From Ideonella dechloratans (GTDB taxonomy: Bacteria; Pseudomonadota; Gammaproteobacteria; Burkholderiales; Burkholderiaceae_C), in NCBI RefSeq assembly GCF_021049305.1, contig NZ_CP088081.1:2542001-2606000 (forward strand): DNA of 64,000 nucleotides. The letters are read 5' to 3'. A program made the translations under genes and the position numbers. The notes beneath the pieces are model-generated. The model was not told the DNA's origin. It searched no databases and was given only the letters and a program-made list of their open reading frames with translations. Positions 21,986 to 38,089 of this stretch are shown here, piece by piece (the stretch's first letter is position 1; the number at the start of each line of letters is the position of its first letter).

Positions 21986-22486
21986 TCAGCGGACCCAGCG
22001 ACGGGCGTCCTTCAAGAGCAGCAACAATTGCTGTTCGCGCAGCGGTGACGCGATGAACCCGAACCGGGTGTAGAACCTCGCCGCTTCTTCATCGATGGGG
22101 TGGGTCAGCATGGCACGGATGCCGGCCTGTTCGGCAATCAGCATCGTGCGGCGAATCGCGTCCTGCAGCAGGCCAAAGCCTATCCCTCGCCCCTGGTCCA
22201 CCACCGAGACAGCGAGCCTCGCCAGAATCACCACCGGCAACGGGTACTGCCCCATCCCCTTGCGAATGCGCTCCGGCGCCTCCAGCGTGTCGACTTGTCC
22301 CACGGTCAGGCTAAAGTAGCCCGCCACGCGGCCATCGTCCTCGGCAACGACAAAGGTCTTGGCCGAGCCACTGCCCTGCGCCTGGCGGGCGTGGCGCAAC
22401 AGCCAGTCATTCAACGCGGGCTTGCCGCAATCAAAACCTTCCAGCCGATGCTGCGCGGCCAGAGGCTCCGGTGCGCGCAACGTCAC
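21986..22486 (-). CDS. GNAT acetyltransferase toxin (TacT/AtaT type)
   Basis: 166 aa. GFDCGKPALNDWLLRHA is the substrate-side N-terminus of TacT-like toxins. VVAEDDGRVAGYFSL and LARLAVSVVDQGRGIGFGLLQDAIRR hold the acetyl-CoA-binding loop (Q/RxxGxG/A), and FYTRFGF is the C-terminal catalytic-Tyr region. These toxins acetylate charged aminoacyl-tRNA and stop translation. It starts 4 nt inside the end of the DUF1778 antitoxin gene, the usual arrangement. Confidence 0.9.
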   Translation of the reverse strand: MTLRAPEPLAAQHRLEGFDCGKPALNDWLLRHARQAQGSGSAKTFVVAEDDGRVAGYFSLTVGQVDTLEAPERIRKGMGQYPLPVVILARLAVSVVDQGRGIGFGLLQDAIRRTMLIAEQAGIRAMLTHPIDEEAARFYTRFGFIASPLREQQLLLLLKDARRWVR

Positions 22487-22776
22487 TTCGTATCCCAGGG
22501 CGCCTTGCGGGCAAACAGGTCACGCAACCCCTCGTTGGCTTGTTCGGGGCGATCCAGCAGATCCATCAGGGCCTGGTACTGGCTGCCCGAGACCATGAAC
22601 AATCGTTGGTCCAGCAGCGTCTGCTCGGCGGCCAGGCACGCGCTGTCGAGGATGAAGTCGGTCAACGACTTGTGGGCCACCTCGGCGGCACGGCGCAGCA
22701 CCACCTCCTGTTCGGGGGTAGCGCGCAGCCCAAGTCGGGCAGAACGGGCGGAAGGCGACGATGCAACGGCAGTCAT
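22483..22776 (-). CDS. DUF1778 antitoxin
   Basis: 97 aa. ARLGLRATPEQEVVLRRAAEVAHKSL is the ribbon-helix-helix of DUF1778 antitoxins, followed by a C-terminal toxin-neutralising tail (LDRPEQANEGLRDLFA). It is first in the operon, overlaps the acetyltransferase gene and should repress its own promoter just upstream (22777-22830). Confidence 0.9.
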   Translation of the reverse strand: MTAVASSPSARSARLGLRATPEQEVVLRRAAEVAHKSLTDFILDSACLAAEQTLLDQRLFMVSGSQYQALMDLLDRPEQANEGLRDLFARKAPWDTK

Positions 22777-23811: not shown

Positions 23812-24744
23812 AGTCGCTCCTACTCTTCCCTGCAAGGCCCACTCCTTTCGGAGGAGAACAGAACACGGAGGCGTGATACATCCCTAGGAGTCACTCTCGT
23901 CGGCACCAGTTCCGCTAGCAGACGAAGCGGATCACTTAGTGCGCAGAATAGTGCGACTGTACACTGACTCCTCATTCCCTCGTATCGGACAGAAGAACGG
24001 CGTTTGTAGGTCAGAACCCACACGACCGACACGGATCATCACCGTGCACGACTTTGTTGGATGGAACCATTCCTACTAGCACACTAGGATGCGTCGCTGC
24101 CAGCTTCCTCGCCCCGCCCTCCTCTGCCTCCCCCTCGCATTCCTGCCGGGCGCATCTTTCGCCTGGGGCGCCATCGTCCACCGGGCCATCGCAGCGTAGA
24201 CCTACAGCTAGCTCTCGCCCAAGGCCCAGGCGCGATGTGGACGCGCGCGCCCCGGCGCGCTTCAGTGGGAGGGAAATCTTCAGTGACCTGAAATTTTCTT
24301 CAGAACCCCAGCGAGGCCAGATTTCTTCTTCAGGCGACACCGCTCCAGGATCTATGCGATGGGCCCGTGGCCACGCTGGCCAGCATCTCCATATGGGCCG
24401 ATAAGCACCGCTCGCCGGCCACAGCCCGGTGGCGCTCCGTCAACACCGCCGCGGACGCAGGCTGCCACTACGTCGCAGAGCGTGACTGCGCGGTTGGTGC
24501 GTGCGTGGTGGGCGCGATCGAGCGCAAGGCCGCAGTCTTCCGTTCAGCAGCGCCGGCACCGGAACGCCTAAAGGCCCTGAAGTACCTCATGTGCGCATTC
24601 CACTGATGGCGGACAGTGATTCCATTCCCATCGCGGACAGCGTTCCAGGCGATGGCGGACACGTTGCGCGGGTGTCCTGAGTGACGCTCAAATCGTAGCC
24701 GAAGTGTCCGCCATCAGCGTGGAATGGCGGTCGGCGCGGCCGGC

Positions 24745-25482
24745 TCAGACGGCCTTTGCCAGCTTTCTCATCGACTCGCCCTTGAGGGCTATCTTGTGCG
24801 AGCCGTGCACGATGCGGTCCAGGATGGCGTCGGCCAGCGTGGGCTCGTCCAGCCAGGCGTGCCAGGCCGTCACCGGCAACTGGCTGGTGATGAGCGTCGA
24901 GCGCGCACCCACCCGGTCGTCGAGCAACTCCAGCAGGTCGTTTCGCTCGTGCGCGGCAATCGGCGCGATGCCGAAGTCGTCCAGGATGAGCAGGTCCAGC
25001 CGCGCCAGTTGCGCCAGCCGTTTGCCCAGGCTGCCATCGCCGTGGGCCACGTGCAACTCCTGCAGCAGCCGTGGCGCGCGGGTGTAGAGCACCGAGAAGC
25101 CCAGACGCGCGGCCTGCTGCCCCAGTGCGCAGGCAAGCCACGTCTTGCCGCACCCGGTGGCGCCGGTCAGCAGCACGTTGTGGCCATGGCGCAGCCAGTC
25201 GCCGCCGGCCAGGCTGGTGATGACCTCCCGGCCCAGGCCCCGGCTGGCGCGCCAGTCGATGTCCTCCAGGCAGGCACTGGAGACCTTCAGGCGGGCCGCC
25301 TTGAGCAGGCGCTCCAGGCGTTTGCTGTCACGCCAGTCCACCTCGCGCTGCACCAGCAGCGCCAGACGTTGTTCAAAGGGCAGTTCGCTGGCTGTGATGT
25401 GGGTGGCCGCGTCGCTGAGGGCGGCCACCATGCCGTCCAGGCGCAGGGCGCGCAGTTGGTTCAAGGTCTGTTCGTTGAGCAT
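24745..25482 (-). CDS. istB: IS21-family helper ATPase IstB
   Basis: 245 aa. DnaC/IstB-type AAA+ protein with LLTGATGCGKTWLACALG (Walker A, ~residue 107) and LLILDDFGIAPI (Walker B, ~170). The N-terminal helical domain (LNQLRALRLDGMVAAL) is typical. IstB assembles on DNA and licenses the IstA transposase for target selection. It follows istA with a 36-bp gap. All motifs look intact. Confidence 0.93.
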   Translation of the reverse strand: MLNEQTLNQLRALRLDGMVAALSDAATHITASELPFEQRLALLVQREVDWRDSKRLERLLKAARLKVSSACLEDIDWRASRGLGREVITSLAGGDWLRHGHNVLLTGATGCGKTWLACALGQQAARLGFSVLYTRAPRLLQELHVAHGDGSLGKRLAQLARLDLLILDDFGIAPIAAHERNDLLELLDDRVGARSTLITSQLPVTAWHAWLDEPTLADAILDRIVHGSHKIALKGESMRKLAKAV

Positions 25483-25518
25483 GGTTCTTCCTTGTTGGGT
25501 TTGCTTGCGCGTTGGAGC

Positions 25519-27042
25519 TCAGTGGTAGTAGTCCGGCCCGCGCACGTTCTCGTGCAGCGGCAGGCTCGCCTGTGCGGCCATCGGCGCATCCAGCGGCCGC
25601 TGGTCCAGGCCGCAGCCCAGGATGGAGGCGATGCTCTTGTAGGACGGTGAGCGAATCGACTGCGCCCGCGCACAGGCGGCCTCCAGCCGGTCAGCCCCGT
25701 ACTCACGGCCCAGGCGCATGAGGCCCAGACAGGAGCGGTAACCCTGCTCGGGATGCTGGCGGTGCTCCATCTGCCAGCGCACCACGGCGGCGGTGGCCGC
25801 ACCCACGCGCTCGCCCCAGGCGATGAGCTTGGCCGGCGTCCACTGCAGGTGCGCCCGGTGCGAGGCCGGCATGTGCTCAGGTGTGGTGGTGTGTGCACCC
25901 CGGCGGGGATTGAGGGCGTGGGCGGCCACCCGTTTGCCGCCATGCAGGACTTCGACCGTGCCGGCCGTGATGCGCAACTCCACCGGCTCGCCCACCAGGG
26001 CGTGGGGCACCGAGTAGTAGTGGCCATCGAGCTCGACGTGGTAATCGATGTTGACGCGGGCGGGTTTGAAGCGCGCGATGGGCATGCGCACCGCCGGCAG
26101 GGGGCGCAGGGCCGGCCGGTCAAGCTCGGCGAAGGCACTGGCGCGGTTGCCCGGCAGCTTCTTGAACGCGCGCTGGTTCAAGTCCACCAGCAAGGCGGCA
26201 ATCGCCCGGTTGAGCTCGGCCAGGCTGAAGAAGGTCTGGTGGCGCAGCCGGGCCAGAATCCAGCGCTCGACCACCTGCACGGCGACCTCCACCTTGGGTT
26301 TGTCGCGTGGCTTGGCCGGGCGCGCGGGCATCACGGCCAGGCTGTAGTGCGCACAGAGTTCTTCGAGCAGGCGGTGCGCGGTGGGCTCGTAGCGGTCGGG
26401 GCGGGCCATGAGGGCGCGCGGCTGGTCGGGCACCAGCAGGCGGGGCACGCCGCCGATGAACTCCAGCGTGGCAATGATGCTGGCCACCCAGTCAGCGGCC
26501 TTCTGGCTGGCAGTGGCGCAGGCGTAGGTGTAGTTCGATGCGCCCAGCACTGCCACGAAGACCTGGGCCGGGCGTATCTCGCCGGTGCTGGCGTCCACGA
26601 CGGGCACGGTCTGGCCGGCGTAGTCCACGAAGAGCTTGTCACCGCCCGAGTGGGTCTGGCGCATGGAGCGCTGCAGGCGCCGGGCCCAAGCCTTGTACTT
26701 CTCGCAGAAGGCGCTGTACTTGTACGCCTGACCGCTGTGCTGTTGCTGGTATTCCTCCCACAGCAGCTGCAGCGTCACGCCAGGTCGGCGCAGTTCGCGG
26801 TGGATGTGGGCGTGGTCGGGTTCGAGGTGCCGGGACTCGCGCGCCACGGGTGGCTTGTAAAGCCGGGCCTGGAGTTCGTCGTCGTTCAGGCTCTGGGCCG
26901 TAGCCCAGTCCACGCCGGCCACGCGCGCGTAGCTGGCTATCTCGCTGACAGTGGATTTGGAGATGCCGAGGGCGGCACCGATTTGACGGGTGCTCAAGGC
27001 CCCGCGGTGCAGCAGTTGCAGTGTGTGTCGTAGTTTGCTCAT
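25519..27042 (-). CDS. istA: IS21-family transposase IstA
   Basis: 507 aa from the ATG before SKLRHTLQLL; an upstream in-frame start at 27063 is less likely. The N-terminal HTH (STRQIGAALGISKSTVSEIASYA) binds the terminal repeats. The DDE/rve integrase core shows KLFVDYAGQTVPVVDA (first Asp), an Asp region at LLVPDQPRALM, and later catalytic residues near PRDKPKVEVAVQ. The C-terminal beta-barrel domain (YHVELDGHYYSVPH) is typical. It cuts and joins the IS ends. Confidence 0.93.
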   Translation of the reverse strand: MSKLRHTLQLLHRGALSTRQIGAALGISKSTVSEIASYARVAGVDWATAQSLNDDELQARLYKPPVARESRHLEPDHAHIHRELRRPGVTLQLLWEEYQQQHSGQAYKYSAFCEKYKAWARRLQRSMRQTHSGGDKLFVDYAGQTVPVVDASTGEIRPAQVFVAVLGASNYTYACATASQKAADWVASIIATLEFIGGVPRLLVPDQPRALMARPDRYEPTAHRLLEELCAHYSLAVMPARPAKPRDKPKVEVAVQVVERWILARLRHQTFFSLAELNRAIAALLVDLNQRAFKKLPGNRASAFAELDRPALRPLPAVRMPIARFKPARVNIDYHVELDGHYYSVPHALVGEPVELRITAGTVEVLHGGKRVAAHALNPRRGAHTTTPEHMPASHRAHLQWTPAKLIAWGERVGAATAAVVRWQMEHRQHPEQGYRSCLGLMRLGREYGADRLEAACARAQSIRSPSYKSIASILGCGLDQRPLDAPMAAQASLPLHENVRGPDYYH

Positions 27043-27130
27043 GGTGACCCTGGGTGTGGGCATCGCTGGCTCCGGTCAAAAAAACCGGGCAGCGTATGCC
27101 GCGTTCGGGTCACTCAGAACACCCCGCAGG

Positions 27131-27247
27131 TGTCCGCCATCAGTTTGGAATGCTGTCCGCCTTCAGCGTGGAACACTGTCCGCCATCATGGTGGAACACT
27201 GTCCGCCATCAGCGTGGAATCGTGTCCGCCATCGCGTGGAATACGCA
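27131..27247. repeat. Five tandem 23-bp subterminal repeats of the IS21 element
   Basis: TGTCCGCC begins at 27131, 27154, 27177, 27200 and 27223, an exact 23-bp period, each followed by an ATCA/TTCA-like stretch and TGGAA. Relatives occur inverted near the left end (24605-24725). These are the multiple transposase-binding sites typical of IS21 ends. Confidence 0.85.
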
Positions 27248-27421: not shown

Positions 27422-27451
27422 TTGAAATTAGAGACAGCGGCCTCAACTAAT
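27422..27451 (+). promoter_or_regulatory. Possible sigma-70 promoter of the tRNA-Leu-like gene
   Basis: TTGAAA (27422-27427), an 18-bp spacer and ACTAAT (27446-27451) end 7 bp before the predicted tRNA 5' end. The -35 and -10 matches are moderate. Confidence 0.35.
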
Positions 27452-27458
27452 GTTCACT

Positions 27459-27575
27459 GCGCGTGTGGCGAAATCGGTATACGCGCCAACTTGCCCAAGG
27501 GCCTTAGATCACGGGCCTTTGGGAAGTTGGTGGGGTGTGAGCCCCATAGGGGTTCGATTCCCCTCGCGCGCACCA
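27459..27575 (+). tRNA. tRNA-Leu-like class II tRNA with a greatly extended anticodon arm
   Basis: 117 nt with encoded CCA. The acceptor GCGCGTG/CGCGCGC (7 bp with one G-T), D-arm (GCG AAATCGGTATA CGC), long variable arm (TGGGG/CCCCA) and T-arm (AGGGG TTCGATT CCCCT) are all regular. A73, A14 and the D-loop match tRNA-Leu. The anticodon arm is not regular: CCAACTT/AAGTTGG (7 bp) continues past one bulged G into CCCAAGGGCC/GGCCTTTGGG (10 bp with one G-T), closing a 10-nt loop TTAGATCACG. No 7-nt anticodon loop exists, so it cannot decode normally. It may be a degenerate gene, a tRNA with an inserted palindrome, or a non-decoding tRNA-like RNA. Confidence 0.7.
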
Positions 27576-28243: not shown

Positions 28244-29350
28244 TCAGGCAGCTGACCTCTGAGGCGTGAGCTGAACGACATTGGCCGGCTGATCTCCAGT
28301 TGAGTAGCCCAGCAGGGACTGCATGATTTGGGGCCTCACACGCATCTCGCGAGCGACAGCGGCTTCTGGCACGCCGAAATGCTCCCTCATCACCTTGAGG
28401 CTCTCCACGATCACCTCAGGATCCTCGCGTGGAATCAAATGGTCTTCCGTCTCGCGCTGCGCTTCGCCATGCCGGTTAAGGCCGACATAGCCCGCCCTCG
28501 CTTGATCTTCGGTGAACAAGCCAAGCTGTCGAGCTCGGAAAATGAGCGCCGCCTTGGATACGCCCCAGCGCATCTTTAGCTCGGACAACCCCGTCCAATT
28601 CAAACGCGTACCTCGCAATGCCATCCGGCATTCGGTAGCAAAGGCACTGCGCGGTAGTAGCAGCGCACTAGCAAACCGGTTGGCCTGGGCCTCGGTCAAG
28701 CGATCACCGGTAAGGACACCGATGTGCAGCGAAAAGTGCCCCAACTCATGAGCGATGCCGAAACGCTCACGGCAAGCTGATCGCCCATCGGCGTTCAATG
28801 CAATCAGGGGCCGCTTGGTCGCAAAGGAAACTGCGTCGATCTCTGGCGCCAGCCCGCGCACTCGCATGACGACAGCCCCCGCGTTCTCAGCAATCCGCGT
28901 CACGCTGCTCAAGGGCCCCATGCCCAAGCCGAACAGTGCCCGGAAGGCTTCCGCAGCACGCTCAATAGCCTCCGTCGTCTCCGCATCGGCCTCCTTCACC
29001 CGGTACGAGGGCAACTCAACATGCTCGTCGAGCACGCCGATCAATCGCTTGAGCATTTCACCCCGCGCACGAGCAACCTGACGCAGCGCCACCTTAGTTG
29101 TTAGCTGTCTGCGGAAATGGCACTGCTCGTCAACGATGGGGTTGGTATCGACGTAATGAAAGAAGTCGGGCAGCACGCCCAACTCTTGGGCCAGACTCTC
29201 TTGGAGCTGAGTCGATGCGACCTCCGCACCAGTTTCGATGCGGCTGAGGAACTGCTTGGACACGCTGACCCTGTCGCCCAAGTCCGTGAGCGACAGGTCG
29301 TGAAATAAACGGGCCAGTCGCAGATTGCTCCCAATGAATCCTGTGCTCAT
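28244..29350 (-). CDS. XRE-family HTH regulator fused to ImmA/IrrE metallopeptidase
   Basis: 368 aa. Residues ~8-65 are an XRE helix-turn-helix (LTDLGDRVSVSKQFLSRIETG). The ImmA/IrrE peptidase domain has the zinc motif HELGHFS near residue 215, with a downstream helix (ANRFASALLLP). Such proteins cleave or sense partner repressors in mobile elements and toxin-antitoxin-like systems. It follows the 199-aa gene with a 4-nt ATGA overlap, so the two form one unit. The ~120-residue C-terminal extension after the peptidase domain is of unknown role. Confidence 0.85.
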   Translation of the reverse strand: MSTGFIGSNLRLARLFHDLSLTDLGDRVSVSKQFLSRIETGAEVASTQLQESLAQELGVLPDFFHYVDTNPIVDEQCHFRRQLTTKVALRQVARARGEMLKRLIGVLDEHVELPSYRVKEADAETTEAIERAAEAFRALFGLGMGPLSSVTRIAENAGAVVMRVRGLAPEIDAVSFATKRPLIALNADGRSACRERFGIAHELGHFSLHIGVLTGDRLTEAQANRFASALLLPRSAFATECRMALRGTRLNWTGLSELKMRWGVSKAALIFRARQLGLFTEDQARAGYVGLNRHGEAQRETEDHLIPREDPEVIVESLKVMREHFGVPEAAVAREMRVRPQIMQSLLGYSTGDQPANVVQLTPQRSAA

Positions 29351-29946
29351 TGAACAGCTTCTGTGGCCGCGTCGCCTTCGTCGCGGCGCTTGGGCCCGAT
29401 TTGCGGCTTGCCCACAGGCACCATTGGAGCCAGGGGCTGTTCACCTTCCATACGCAGTACACGCACAGTGTCAGAGACCCAGCGACAAGCAACCTCGTCA
29501 CTAGGCGTGAAGCCCAGGAGCTCAACGCGCGGCTCACCGGCCCCGTCCTGTCCGCGATCGATGATGAAGCAAAACCGCCCCGGCTCTCCAGGGCTAGCGA
29601 ACTCAAGAAAACCCATCTGATGGCGGTTCGCAGTCAGCACAGCCTTCTTGGAGGGGTTGACCGGATCATCGTTACTAAACCGACAAGGCACGCCTCCGAT
29701 TGTGAAGACGAGATCGTTGTTGCCGTTTGATAGACCAAGCCAATGATGCTTCCCAGATGCAACTTCGGCCACGATGCGACTGCGCTGCCGACCGAACGTC
29801 GTACAGCCGCGGGTATATCCAGTGTCAGTCCTCCGAGACAAGTCGTCCTCTGTCGCATAGAACTCCTCCAACAGCCAAGACGCCACCTCTTGAAGTCGAT
29901 CAGAGGACAGAGCGGAGTTGAAAGCGACAGGCAAAGGAAGCGTCAT
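29347..29946 (-). CDS. Unknown partner protein of the XRE-ImmA/IrrE gene
   Basis: 199 aa, soluble, with a good AAGGA ribosome site. It contains CTTFGRQRSRIVAEV and KHHWLGLSNGNNDLVFTIGGVPCRFSND in pieces, and a basic tail (GKPQIGPKRRDEG). I do not recognise a domain. The 4-nt overlap with a downstream regulator-peptidase is the layout of a toxin/antitoxin or effector/regulator pair; this protein would be the effector or substrate by position only. Confidence 0.55.
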   Translation of the reverse strand: MTLPLPVAFNSALSSDRLQEVASWLLEEFYATEDDLSRRTDTGYTRGCTTFGRQRSRIVAEVASGKHHWLGLSNGNNDLVFTIGGVPCRFSNDDPVNPSKKAVLTANRHQMGFLEFASPGEPGRFCFIIDRGQDGAGEPRVELLGFTPSDEVACRWVSDTVRVLRMEGEQPLAPMVPVGKPQIGPKRRDEGDAATEAVQ

Positions 29947-32587: not shown

Positions 32588-33550
32588 TCACGGCTCGTGC
32601 GGCCAGCGTGCATAGTCAAGTTGGGCACGGGCGCTGGAGGGTGTGTATTGCTGGGACTCTGGATCAAACCACAGCGCGACGCGTCCCTCCCATTCGCCAT
32701 TGCGCTGCTTGTCGCAGATGAGCATGGCGTCGGGCATCGTGTCGTCAATTCGCTTGCCGGCCTGGCGGTCCCGCTCCTTGGGCTTGTTGCGCCACACCAG
32801 CAGGAGGTTGTCCACCTGGTCGGTGATGGCACCGGATCCCTTTACGTCGCTCTTGTCGGGCGTATCCCCCTCAGACCCGAGCTTGCGTAGGTGGTGCACC
32901 AAGTGGACGTGCATGCCGGAATCGCGCGCAATGGCGGTCAGCTCGTCCACGAAGTCCTTCTGGCCGTTGTAGTCGTCTTCGCCTCGCACGCACTTCATGA
33001 GCGAGTCCACGACGAAGTGCTGGCACCGGAGTTCGTAGGCCGCATACCGCATGACGCCCAGGATCGTCTTCGTGGCCACGGTCCCCTGCTGGTCGTAGAG
33101 CCAGAGGCGCCCGTCCGTGTAGGCCGCCAGTTGTTCGAAGACCTCACGGTAGGCGTCAAGCAACGCCGGATCGGAGAGGCTACCGTCGGGCAGGCGCGCA
33201 CCTGAGAACTGCCGTGTCATCCGGTCCAGCGTGCGGCTGGGCTTCATCTCGAACGAGGCGATGCACACCCGCTGCCCCTGAGCAACCAGCGACAGCGCGG
33301 ACAACCCGGTCACCTGGCTCTTGCCGTGGCCGTTGACCCCCGCCCACAGGGTGACTTCGCCCGGCCTGAACGCAAAGTGGGCGTGAGTCTTGTTCCAAGG
33401 CAGGAAGCTCCGGGCCTCCTGCCTGGGTTTGCCCAAGTTCTCGACCATCTCGGCAAACCATTCGCGTGCGGGGCGGACCTTCTGACGGGCTTCGGTTTCG
33501 GCCATGTAGGCCGCAAAGTCGATCGTGTCCGAAGAAATCACTTGCGCCAC
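32588..33550 (-). CDS. DnaB/RepA-like replicative ATPase (RecA-fold helicase)
   Basis: 320 aa. Walker A is WAGVNGHGKSQVTG near residue 70. CIASFEMKPSRTLDRM, FVVDSLMKCV (Walker B) and VHLVHHLRKLG are the motifs of the DnaB C-terminal/T7 gp4-like/RepA ATPase fold. The DnaB N-terminal domain is absent, so it is shorter than DnaB (~460 aa). It follows the iteron replication protein and a 127-aa gene that overlaps it by 13 bp, the standard layout of a phage or satellite replication module. Confidence 0.82.
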   Translation of the reverse strand: MAQVISSDTIDFAAYMAETEARQKVRPAREWFAEMVENLGKPRQEARSFLPWNKTHAHFAFRPGEVTLWAGVNGHGKSQVTGLSALSLVAQGQRVCIASFEMKPSRTLDRMTRQFSGARLPDGSLSDPALLDAYREVFEQLAAYTDGRLWLYDQQGTVATKTILGVMRYAAYELRCQHFVVDSLMKCVRGEDDYNGQKDFVDELTAIARDSGMHVHLVHHLRKLGSEGDTPDKSDVKGSGAITDQVDNLLLVWRNKPKERDRQAGKRIDDTMPDAMLICDKQRNGEWEGRVALWFDPESQQYTPSSARAQLDYARWPHEP

Positions 33551-36240: not shown

Positions 36241-37545
36241 TTACGCGACCTCCTTGAACGGCAGCACCTTGGCTCCTTCGCGCAAGGCATCCAGGTAATC
36301 CGCCCACTGGGTCATCAAGGCCCGCCGCTGCTCAAGATACTGGGTCCGGTTGTAGGCGCGGCCGAGGGCGTCGGGCACTGCGTGAGCCAGTTGCGCCTCG
36401 ATCACCTCCGGGGCAATACCCAGGCGCTCCGCGGCCATGGTGCGCGCCATGGCACGAAAGCCGTGCGCGGTCATATCGTCGTTGCCGTACCCCATGCGGC
36501 GCAGCGCACTGCGCACCGTGTTCTCGCTCATGCAACGGGTCTTTGGCGAGGTGACCGACGGAAAGACGAACGGCGTGGCACCGGTCAGCGGCTGCAACTC
36601 GCGCAGGACGGCCACTGCCTGGGTAGCCAGCGGAACCACGTGCGGCGGGCCGTTCTCCTTGTCAGCCTTCTTTCGCTTCATCACCTCCCCCGGAACGGTC
36701 AGGGTCGCGGTTTCCAAATCCACCCATGCCCACTCCATCTGCCGTAGCTCACCCGGACGAAGCAGCAACAAGGCCGACAGCGCCAGCGCGGCCCGCGTGA
36801 CCGGGTGACCGTTGTAGTCGGCCACGTCGCGGAGAAGTTGCCCGGCCTGCTTGGGATCCACGATGGCCGCCAAGTGTTTCGTCTGGACGGGCGGCAGGGC
36901 GTCGCGCAGATCGGCGGCCGGGTTGCGTTGGCAGTAGCCCGCCGCGATGCCGTAGCGGAAGACCTGCCCGCAGGCATCCTTGGCGCGGTGAGCTGTCTCG
37001 ATGGCACCGCGACCGGTGATTCGGCGCAACACCGCCAGCAGTTCCGGTGCTTCGATTTCAGCCAGGGGGCGGGTGCCAATCCAGGGGAAGACATCTTGCT
37101 CGAAGCGGGTCTCAGTACGGTCGGCATGGCTGGCGCTCACCTTGGCGCGGTGCACGGTGCTCAGCCACTCGCGAGTCACCGCCTCGAACGTGCCAGGCAC
37201 AGGCAGCCCGGCCTCCACGATGCGCGTCACCTCCGCGGCTGCCGCCTTGGTGGACTTGTCGGCCTTGCGAACGTCGCTGGGGTCGATCCCCGTTGCGATC
37301 TGCGCCTGGGCCTCATCACGTCGCTGGCGGGCCAGCGTCAAGGGCACCGCCGGATAGACCCCCAGCGACAGCATGGACTGCCGGCCGCCGAAGCGGTAAC
37401 GCAGACGCCACCACCCCACTCCCGACGCCTGGACATCCAACCGGAGTCCACCCCCGTCCGTCATGCGCTCGCCGCTCCCGGTGTCGAGTGCACGCTTGCA
37501 GGCGGCTCGGATGGCCTTGTCGGAGAGGAGGTTCAGGGCTGCCAT
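36241..37545 (-). CDS. int: Tyrosine integrase of the P4/DUF4102 type, at ssrA
   Basis: 434 aa from the ATG at 37545; an in-frame GTG at 37575 lies in the arm-site repeats. An N-terminal DUF4102 arm-binding domain (DGGGLRLDVQASGVGWWRLRY in pieces, MLSLGVYPAVPLTLAR), a SAM-like core-binding domain, and a catalytic domain with LLRPGELRQMEW (Arg), MTAHGFRAMART (His-x-x-Arg) and AYNRTQY (Tyr nucleophile). It lies 174 bp from the tmRNA 3' end, pointing to ssrA as the target. It looks intact. Confidence 0.93.
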   Translation of the reverse strand: MAALNLLSDKAIRAACKRALDTGSGERMTDGGGLRLDVQASGVGWWRLRYRFGGRQSMLSLGVYPAVPLTLARQRRDEAQAQIATGIDPSDVRKADKSTKAAAAEVTRIVEAGLPVPGTFEAVTREWLSTVHRAKVSASHADRTETRFEQDVFPWIGTRPLAEIEAPELLAVLRRITGRGAIETAHRAKDACGQVFRYGIAAGYCQRNPAADLRDALPPVQTKHLAAIVDPKQAGQLLRDVADYNGHPVTRAALALSALLLLRPGELRQMEWAWVDLETATLTVPGEVMKRKKADKENGPPHVVPLATQAVAVLRELQPLTGATPFVFPSVTSPKTRCMSENTVRSALRRMGYGNDDMTAHGFRAMARTMAAERLGIAPEVIEAQLAHAVPDALGRAYNRTQYLEQRRALMTQWADYLDALREGAKVLPFKEVA

Positions 37546-37548
37546 GAG

Positions 37549-37719
37549 GGTAACTCTAGCAGCACCTACCCTCACATAGGGCCAGTTACCCTCAAAGCTA
37601 CCCTCACGCCCCCTGGATGAACCGGGGCGAATCTGGTCCCATATGGACGAGAAAAAGGCCCTAAGTCGTTGATTTACTTAGGGCCTTGATCGTTTTCACA
37701 CCTAAGTGTGAGGGTAAGT
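37549..37719. repeat. Integrase arm-type repeats between int and ssrA
   Basis: TACCCTCA-type units occur at 37566-37574, 37586-37594 and 37599-37606, and inverted (GAGGGTAA) near 37549-37557 and 37710-37717. Similar TTACCCTTAA/TTACCCTCAA units lie at 23140-23163. They are likely integrase arm-binding sites. Confidence 0.6.
37652..37687 (-). terminator. Terminator downstream of tmRNA
   Basis: A perfect 12-bp stem (AAGGCCCTAAGT / ACTTAGGGCCTT, 37655-37666 with 37676-37687) is followed on the minus strand by five T. It lies ~30 bp after the tmRNA 3' end and separates ssrA from int. Confidence 0.85.
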
Positions 37720-37732
37720 GGTGGAGCCGGGG
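37719..37732. other. Integrase-proximal attachment site at the ssrA 3' end
   Basis: TGGTGGAGCCGGGG on the plus strand is the reverse complement of the tmRNA 3' end and is the probable recombination core used by the adjacent integrase. A near copy lies at 23085-23097. Confidence 0.5.
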
Positions 37733-38089
37733 GGAATTGAACCCCCGTCCGCAAGCCATCGCCAGGTAGATCTACATGCTTAGCTGACTGATTTGATTCT
37801 CGTGCCTTCGGTCGCGCAGCAGCACGCTACCGATGACACCAGCCACTTGATCTCACCTCCTGATGCATGGCCAACCAGGAGACCAGCCCATGTGAATGAC
37901 CTCTCAGCGCTTGCCTTGCGGCTCACGCCCGGCCCATGGGCCAACCGTTGAGAGGCTCACCGGTGTTAAGCGGCGAGGGCGAAACGTTCGTCGTTCGCAG
38001 TTACTTTGTTTCCAGTGGTTTAACGAGCGAACTGGTGCTCGACATGCACTATCCCGACTCCGCACCCACGTCGAAACCAGGTCGGCCCC
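37719..38089 (-). ncRNA. ssrA: Transfer-messenger RNA (tmRNA)
   Basis: 371 nt. The 5' GGGGCCG pairs with 3' CGGCTCC before ACCA, forming the tRNA-Ala-like acceptor. The 5' GGTTTCGACGTGGG and 3' GGGGGTTCAATTCCCCC are the conserved tRNA-like parts. The tag reading frame (resume Ala then ANDERFALAA, stop TAA; 37966-37998) is typical of Burkholderiales. It rescues stalled ribosomes with SmpB. The last 14 bases form the island attachment core, and the 3' end is intact after integration. Confidence 0.97.

What the first reader, a model, noticed from the sequence alone, without database searches (positions are those of the whole stretch)
27459..27575. tRNA-Leu-like gene whose anticodon arm is a 17-bp hairpin with no anticodon loop
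Seen: regular acceptor, D, variable and T arms, encoded CCA, A73, and a stem of 7 bp plus 10 bp with one bulged G replacing the usual 5-bp stem and 7-nt loop. A possible promoter (TTGAAA-18-ACTAAT) ends 7 bp upstream. Known: bacterial LeuRS does not read the anticodon, so such an RNA could still be charged with leucine. Inference: a non-decoding leucyl donor (for example for Leu/Phe transferase or peptide synthesis), a decoy RNA, or a tRNA with a ~28-nt inserted palindrome. The stem pairs throughout with G-T pairs, so structure appears to have been kept.
Basis: partly seen in the sequence, partly recalled or inferred. Interest (0 to 1): 0.75.

Follow-up and report, generated by a model that had tools for sequence, protein, structure and literature searches.

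The report
Phage tRNA-Leu with hairpin replacing anticodon
A remnant of a virus-like element in a bacterial genome carries a leucine transfer-RNA gene that looks intact except that a 31-base hairpin sits where the three anticodon bases should be, so it may still accept leucine but should not read codons; whether it does anything is unknown.

Summary
Window 27459-27575 is a class II, Leu-type tRNA: Rfam tRNA 43.8 bits, 37 of 37 cloverleaf pairs standard, A73, encoded CCA, all LeuRS determinants that I checked present. The anticodon triplet is replaced by 31 nt that mostly pair with themselves, giving a 7+10 bp arm with a bulged G and a 10-nt apical loop. It is supernumerary: the host has Leu TAA, CAA, CAG (two), GAG and TAG. 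It lies on a mosaic phage-like element beside tmRNA and has a D-loop form typical of phage tRNA-Leu genes.

Full-length copies: own plus 1 other of 60 relatives, identical; so covariation cannot be tested, and the proposed promoter is not conserved. Analogues exist: two pairs of phage tRNA-Leu genes carry 26- or 32-nt hairpins in the anticodon loop with compensatory changes. Left out, those inserts give a normal UAA loop; here no placement gives a Leu anticodon. Best reading: a phage tRNA-Leu with a palindromic insert, chargeable, non-decoding, function unproven. A wider set of phage Leu-type tRNA-like RNAs with pseudoknots in place of the anticodon arm turned up in passing.

The parts
27459..27575 (+). 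tRNA-Leu-like RNA gene with encoded CCA (117 nt)
   Evidence: Rfam tRNA 43.8 bits; 37 of 37 pairs standard; identical copy in G013
27486..27530 (+). extended anticodon arm: 7 bp, bulged G, 10 bp, 10-nt apical loop
   Evidence: 0 of 5000 shuffles fold as well
27493..27523 (+). 31 nt in the place of the anticodon triplet, between TT (32-33) and AA (37-38); net +28 nt
   Evidence: sequence; alignment to the host Leu tRNAs shows 28 extra columns
27572..27575 (+). discriminator A73 and encoded CCA
   Evidence: 27449-27451 AAT reads GGG in G013; no site in the consensus scan
36241..37575 (-). tyrosine integrase of the element
   Evidence: Pfam Phage_integrase and Arm-DNA-bind_3
37719..38089 (-). tmRNA gene beside the integrase, probable integration site of the element
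   Evidence: Rfam RF00023 205.8 bits; ARAGORN tag ANDERFALAA; 37690-37724 recurs at 91% on the far side of the element in G013
32588..33550 (-). DnaB-like helicase of the element
   Evidence: Pfam DnaB_C 3e-14, PHROG 5482

Best explanation
It is a tRNA-Leu gene of phage type, carried on a mosaic prophage-like element beside the tmRNA gene. A palindromic segment (net +28 nt) stands in its anticodon loop and stacks on the anticodon stem as a 17-bp arm, so no anticodon can reach the decoding site. Shown: intact acceptor, D, variable and T arms as a cloverleaf; the long arm; a full host set of Leu tRNAs; a phage-type D loop. Inferred: if transcribed (read-through is likelier than an own promoter), it could be trimmed and charged with leucine, because LeuRS does not need the anticodon arm, but it would not decode. 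Inferred and uncertain: it is more likely a passenger that has lost decoding than a selected leucyl donor or decoy.
For: Rfam match and pairing. LeuRS determinants listed in PMC9976931 are present: A73, A15-U48, G18 G19, A20a, U8 and A14, U54 and A58, U55, C56, and C2-G71 against SerRS. Host Leu set complete. Phage-like element beside tmRNA. D-loop form TGGCGAAATNGGYATACGCG: 45 viral contigs, 34 of them with acceptor at least 6 of 7 and a canonical anticodon arm, against 3 of 399 order genomes, own included. Comparable hairpin inserts in phage tRNA-Leu: L171, L380, L137, L364. No conserved promoter.
Against: The energy minimum is not the cloverleaf (-66.5 against -58.4). No expression or charging data. 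No decay of the body after the insertion: 0 of 14 differences fall in the gene (p = 0.10), which would also fit selection. The source of the insert is not found: the arm occurs once in each of 2 of 16 genus genomes and not in viral contigs.
Confidence: 0.55

Rival explanations
1. A selected, non-decoding tRNA mimic of a mobile element: charged with leucine or bound by LeuRS, EF-Tu or a tRNA-targeting nuclease, and kept as donor or decoy, like other phage Leu-type RNAs whose anticodon domain is replaced.
For: All pairs and determinants kept; 0 of 14 differences in the gene; covarying long arms in phage pairs L171/L380 and L137/L364; phage Leu-type RNAs with pseudoknots in place of the anticodon arm; a RosmerTA-type pair beside it.
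Against: p = 0.10 only; two identical copies, so no covariation; no conserved promoter; the RosmerTA pair is in a stretch that G013 lacks; no partner protein identified.
Confidence: 0.25
2. A tRNA with a short intron in the anticodon loop that is removed to give a decoding tRNA.
For: In four phage tRNA-Leu genes (L171, L380: 26 nt; L137, L364: 32 nt, boundaries set by eye) leaving the insert out gives CTTAAAA, and ARAGORN lists no other UAA tRNA-Leu in the fetched parts of those contigs.
Against: For the window RNA the possible 7-nt loops carry GGG, GCG or GCC, none a Leu anticodon; the host already has all Leu isoacceptors; no bacterial enzyme for such an intron is known to me (recalled).
Confidence: 0.07
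3. A pure pseudogene or DNA-level palindrome: never made into an RNA.
For: No promoter or terminator in the scan; mosaic region with an IS21 insertion upstream.
Against: Every pair of the body is intact; a palindrome at DNA level would not need the tRNA body.
Confidence: 0.1
4. A decoding tRNA-Leu(UAG) with a very long anticodon stem.
For: The apical loop holds U-UAG-A.
Against: 13% of random 10-mers hold a U followed by a Leu anticodon; a 17-bp stem instead of 5 puts it far from the decoding site (established tRNA structure, recalled).
Confidence: 0.03

Closest known systems
Phage-encoded tRNA-Leu (class II)
   Same: D-loop form, acceptor, variable and T arms, A73
   Different: 31 nt in place of the anticodon triplet; cannot decode
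Phage tRNA-Leu(UAA) genes with a hairpin insert in the anticodon loop (L171/L380, L137/L364; found here)
   Same: paired insert in the anticodon loop of a Leu-type tRNA
   Different: theirs restores CTTAAAA if left out and covaries between phages; the window's does neither
L222 (Phycisphaerales MAG contig; found here)
   Same: best R1 score after the window, 68.0 bits; long arm of 14 bp plus outer stem with a bulge
   Different: other sequence; R1 scores ordinary host Leu tRNAs at 50.5-56.4 bits, so this is not proof of kinship
Allo-tRNAs (Mukai et al. 2017, as reviewed in PMC7609411, section read)
   Same: odd class II-like tRNAs; some are tied to transposable elements and do not work in translation in E. 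coli
   Different: defined by a 12-bp acceptor branch (8/4 or 9/3) and Ser identity; the window has 7/5 and A73
tmRNA
   Same: tRNA-like domain with a long helix in place of the anticodon arm
   Different: no tag reading frame; D stem present; Rfam and ARAGORN call the neighbour at 37719-38089 the tmRNA
T4 stable RNAs C and D
   Same: phage small RNAs beside tRNA genes; a T-arm-like sequence near the end of RNA C
   Different: no Leu-type D arm seen in the sequence

Membership tests
tRNA-Leu (bacterial, class II) | cloverleaf with 7-bp acceptor, 5-bp T arm, long variable arm | tested here: met
   37 of 37 pairs standard; Rfam tRNA 43.8 bits; energy minimum differs
tRNA-Leu (bacterial, class II) | LeuRS determinants A73, A15-U48, G18 G19, A20a, U8-A14, D-loop/T-loop contacts | tested here: met
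   letters listed against the list in PMC9976931
tRNA-Leu (bacterial, class II) | 5-bp anticodon stem and 7-nt loop with a Leu anticodon | tested here: not met
   7+10 bp arm, 10-nt loop
tRNA-Leu (bacterial, class II) | accepts leucine | not testable with these tools
   inferred from PMC9976931 only
Intron-bearing tRNA | leaving out the insert gives a proper anticodon loop of the right identity | tested here: not met
   only GGG, GCG or GCC in 7-nt loops
Intron-bearing tRNA | group I intron | tested here: not met
   Rfam search of the window gives only tmRNA and tRNA; 31 nt is far too short (recalled)
tmRNA | tag-peptide frame between the tRNA halves | tested here: not met
   only the 37719-38089 gene is called tmRNA
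Allo-tRNA | 12-bp acceptor branch (8/4 or 9/3) with Ser identity | tested here: not met
   7-bp acceptor, 5-bp T stem, A73; definition
Phage pseudoknot tRNA-like RNAs (found here) | H-type pseudoknot between D and T arms | tested here: not met
   the window's middle is a nested hairpin plus a variable arm; the pseudoknot test was not run on it

The most novel reading that the evidence does not exclude
The window RNA is one form of a broad, undescribed set of Leu-type tRNA-like RNAs of phages and mobile elements. In these the acceptor, D and T arms are kept for charging or binding while the anticodon domain is replaced by a hairpin or a pseudoknot, so that they act as non-decoding aminoacyl-RNAs or as tRNA mimics.
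Probability: 0.2. Interest if true: 0.8.

Novelty: new variant of a known kind. Interest (0 to 1): 0.5.

Why it matters
If charged, this is a natural aminoacyl-RNA with no decoding function, useful for asking what LeuRS, EF-Tu, RNase P and tRNA-targeting defences need from a tRNA. The search that it prompted turned up many phage RNAs with a tRNA body and no anticodon arm, some of which Rfam's tRNA model does not report. Whether phages keep non-decoding tRNAs on purpose becomes testable.

Tried and rejected
T4 stable RNAs C and D as the same type: no Leu-type D arm seen; RNA C has a T-arm-like 3' part. The arm as a copy of a dispersed palindrome: 2 of 16 genus genomes, one place each, both this locus; none in viral contigs. 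Scans for more inserts of the L171 kind gave mostly ordinary tRNAs or unrelated matches; a scan for the L137 kind gave 3 contigs, L137, L364 and L815, of which L364 and L815 carry the same 121-nt RNA. BLAST of the RNA in phage and plasmid records: no match at E 1e-5; of two phage pseudoknot RNAs in phage records: no match. tRNA-dependent lysogeny (PMC10865867, abstract and passages): here the host Leu set is complete and the element sits at tmRNA. A loop-loop contact between apical and variable loops was seen by eye and left untested. The reading frame upstream resembles an S1/P1-type nuclease by eye (recalled); Pfam gave nothing for a 60-aa piece. R1, built from two identical copies, does not separate the analogues from ordinary Leu tRNAs, so I draw no kinship from it.

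Full report
WHAT IS THERE. Window 27459-27575 reads as a class II tRNA with an encoded CCA. Rfam calls it a tRNA at 43.8 bits; ARAGORN does not. All 37 pairs that I wrote down are standard, 35 Watson-Crick and 2 G-U, and each leucine determinant that I checked is present: A73, C2-G71, U8 and A14, A15-U48, G18 G19, A20a, U54, U55, C56, A58. The list comes from passages of PMC9976931, which also says that E. [quoted passage not shown] The anticodon arm (27486-27530) is 7 bp, a bulged G, 10 bp and a 10-nt loop; none of 5000 shuffles of those 45 nt folds as well. Two points against: the energy minimum of the whole RNA (-66.5) keeps the long arm but re-pairs the variable and T arms, against -58.4 for the cloverleaf; and the apical U-UAG is what chance gives in 13% of 10-mers.

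WHERE IT IS. The host genome (G000, 4.54 Mb, 2 contigs) has 60 tRNA matches, this one included. Of these I had anticodons called for the class II ones: Leu TAA, CAA, CAG twice, GAG and TAG. So the gene is extra. It lies on a mosaic element beside the tmRNA gene: integrase 36241-37575, DnaB-like helicase, replication-initiation-like protein, a RosmerTA-type pair and an IS21. G013, a second genome of the genus, holds the same 117 nt in a matching setting with tmRNA. In G013 a 35-nt stretch next to the tmRNA end recurs at 91% identity on the far side of the element; in the window the far end is less clear, near 23.1 kb. The RosmerTA pair lies in a stretch that G013 lacks.

IS IT CONSERVED? Full-length copies: 2 of 60 genomes, own included; a third genome gave only two pieces of 29-30 nt. 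A model of this RNA (R1, built from the two identical copies) scored 150 bits for those two among 399 family genomes; the next best was 67.5 bits and 89 nt long; at most 9 candidates per genome were scored and the printed list was cut. A pattern for Leu-type tRNAs with 50-80 nt between D and T arm matched 7 of 399 order genomes and 8 of 369 class genomes, with own and G152 in both samples. From the printed letters (some cut at 80) own is the only long anticodon arm; the rest look like ordinary tRNAs with a second chance match, except G509, which has a canonical anticodon arm and a long variable arm. Of 597 viral loci with a relative of the element's helicase the best 80 were kept, and R1 gave one weak match of 87 nt in them. 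BLAST found nothing in phage or plasmid records. In the 772-column block shared with G013 there are 14 differences, none in the gene; chance gives that with p = 0.10. Selection on this RNA is therefore not shown.

WHERE IT COMES FROM. The D-loop form TGGCGAAATNGGYATACGCG occurs in 45 viral contigs. Of these 34 have an acceptor of at least 6 of 7 pairs and a 5 of 5 canonical anticodon arm, by reading mostly with Leu anticodons; 3 more are near that (L663 at a contig end, L668 and L692 with 4 of 5); in 4 no T arm was found (L650, L657, L688, L691) and 4 are odd or broken (L669, L680, L685, L690). In the order it is in 3 of 399 genomes: own, the G509 RNA and a non-tRNA. The body is therefore of phage type. 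This rests on one motif, not on a tree.

ANALOGUES. Pattern scans for Leu-type D arm, long middle and T arm stopped at their limit of 120 rows in viral contigs (twice) and in genome contigs, so no frequencies can be given. 364 matches (132 and 232) gave 263 unique RNAs with at least 6 of 7 acceptor and 4 of 5 T pairs; 118 were set aside as canonical (5 of 5 stem, or the loop string TTGTCTC) and 145 were not, among them at least four Sphingobacteriaceae rows of the set-aside kind (L240, L255, L310, L311). Twenty of the 145 have a closed 5-bp stem at the anticodon position with an arm better than -8 kcal/mol. Those I hold closest to the window are L222 (Phycisphaerales MAG), L171 and L380 (phage), and, with an internal loop, L137. 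L364 resembles L137 but has only 4 of 5 outer pairs and was in the rest of the list. L171 and L380 differ on both sides of the helix (TTAACGG/CCGTTAA and TTAACAC/GTGTTAA); L137 and L364 at least once (GAACA/TGTTC and GAATA/TATTC). In these four, leaving out 26 or 32 nt (boundaries set by eye) gives CTTAAAA, the UAA loop. ARAGORN lists no other UAA tRNA-Leu in the fetched parts of those contigs. They may be real short introns. For the window RNA the same operation never gives a Leu anticodon, so I do not read it as an intron. R1 scores L222 68.0, L364 63.6, L171 58.4, L380 55.9 and L137 41.7 bits, and four ordinary host Leu tRNAs 50.5-56.4: it does not show kinship.

THE WIDER SET. Most other non-canonical viral RNAs have no such arm. 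Of 140 viral ones, 123 remained after near-duplicates were dropped. In 21 of 123 a pseudoknot was reached by at most 1 of 100 single-base shuffles, against 4 of 123 for two nested hairpins; at 5 of 100 it is 29 against 13, at 10 of 100 it is 39 against 22. So most of the 123 are not explained by this test. In L094, L190 and L343 the second helix is TGTAAT/ATTACA, GAGCTTT/AAAGCTC and GCACAAT/ATTGTGC around a fixed GAGTA/TACTC. Near three of them are recombination genes: ERF by L107, NinG by L190, a Rad52-like gene near L104. Rfam reports some as tRNA (L126 40.6, L110 40.8, L190 40.1 bits) and does not report others (L084, L088, L343). Beyond the Leu-type body no kinship with the window RNA is shown.

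LITERATURE. Ten searches of the open PMC library were made, nine of them on odd tRNAs or tRNA-like RNAs; none of the listings showed a paper on a tRNA with such an arm or on phage pseudoknot tRNA-like RNAs. Most subscription journals are not held. I saw: PMC7609411, abstract, passages and the allo-tRNA section; passages of PMC13092985, PMC9976931, PMC10440598, PMC9897764; abstract and passages of PMC10865867. [quoted passage not shown]

VERDICT. A phage-type tRNA-Leu whose anticodon is replaced by a hairpin; probably chargeable, not decoding; more likely passenger than tool, but a selected role is open.

Noticed in passing
L094, L190, L343, L084, L088, L126, L130 and others (viral contigs): Phage Leu-type tRNA-like RNAs with an H-type pseudoknot in place of the anticodon and variable arms; in L094/L190/L343 the second helix changes fully with pairing kept.
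   Followed up: partly
L171:7552-7667, L380:12499-12613, L137:6617-6733, L364:11409-11529: Phage tRNA-Leu genes with 26- or 32-nt hairpin inserts in the anticodon loop; left out, each gives a UAA loop, and no other UAA tRNA-Leu was called nearby: possible very short tRNA introns.
   Followed up: partly
L202-L320, many Sphingobacteriaceae contigs: Chromosomal Leu-type-D-arm tRNAs with a TTGTCTC loop and a long variable arm, in several tandem copies in L220 and L261.
   Followed up: no
L085, L089, L106, L118 and others (viral contigs): Phage tRNAs with a Leu-type D arm, a GTT-type anticodon loop and a long variable region.
   Followed up: no
L252:2686-2802 and L554:1483-1599: Two betaproteobacterial class II tRNAs with about 45-nt variable arms and loops TTAGCGA and TTTGGAA; L554 shares the window RNA's rare D-loop form.
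   Followed up: partly
window 28244-29946: RosmerTA-type pair (RmrA 1.1e-122, RmrT 8.4e-37) directly downstream of the RNA, in a stretch absent from G013.
   Followed up: partly
window 21986-22776: TacA-like antitoxin and GNAT acetyltransferase gene pair, left of the element; such toxins act on charged tRNA (recalled).
   Followed up: no
window about 24643-27245: IS21-type insertion (IstB 3.1e-73, Mu-transpos_C_2 in the partner) with a row of 23-bp repeats at its right end.
   Followed up: partly
L222:5-532: PIN-domain gene (9.7e-09) 138 bp from the long-arm RNA of the Phycisphaerales MAG.
   Followed up: no
L084:7609-8193: Group I intron next to a phage tmRNA, on a contig with a pseudoknot RNA.
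   Followed up: no
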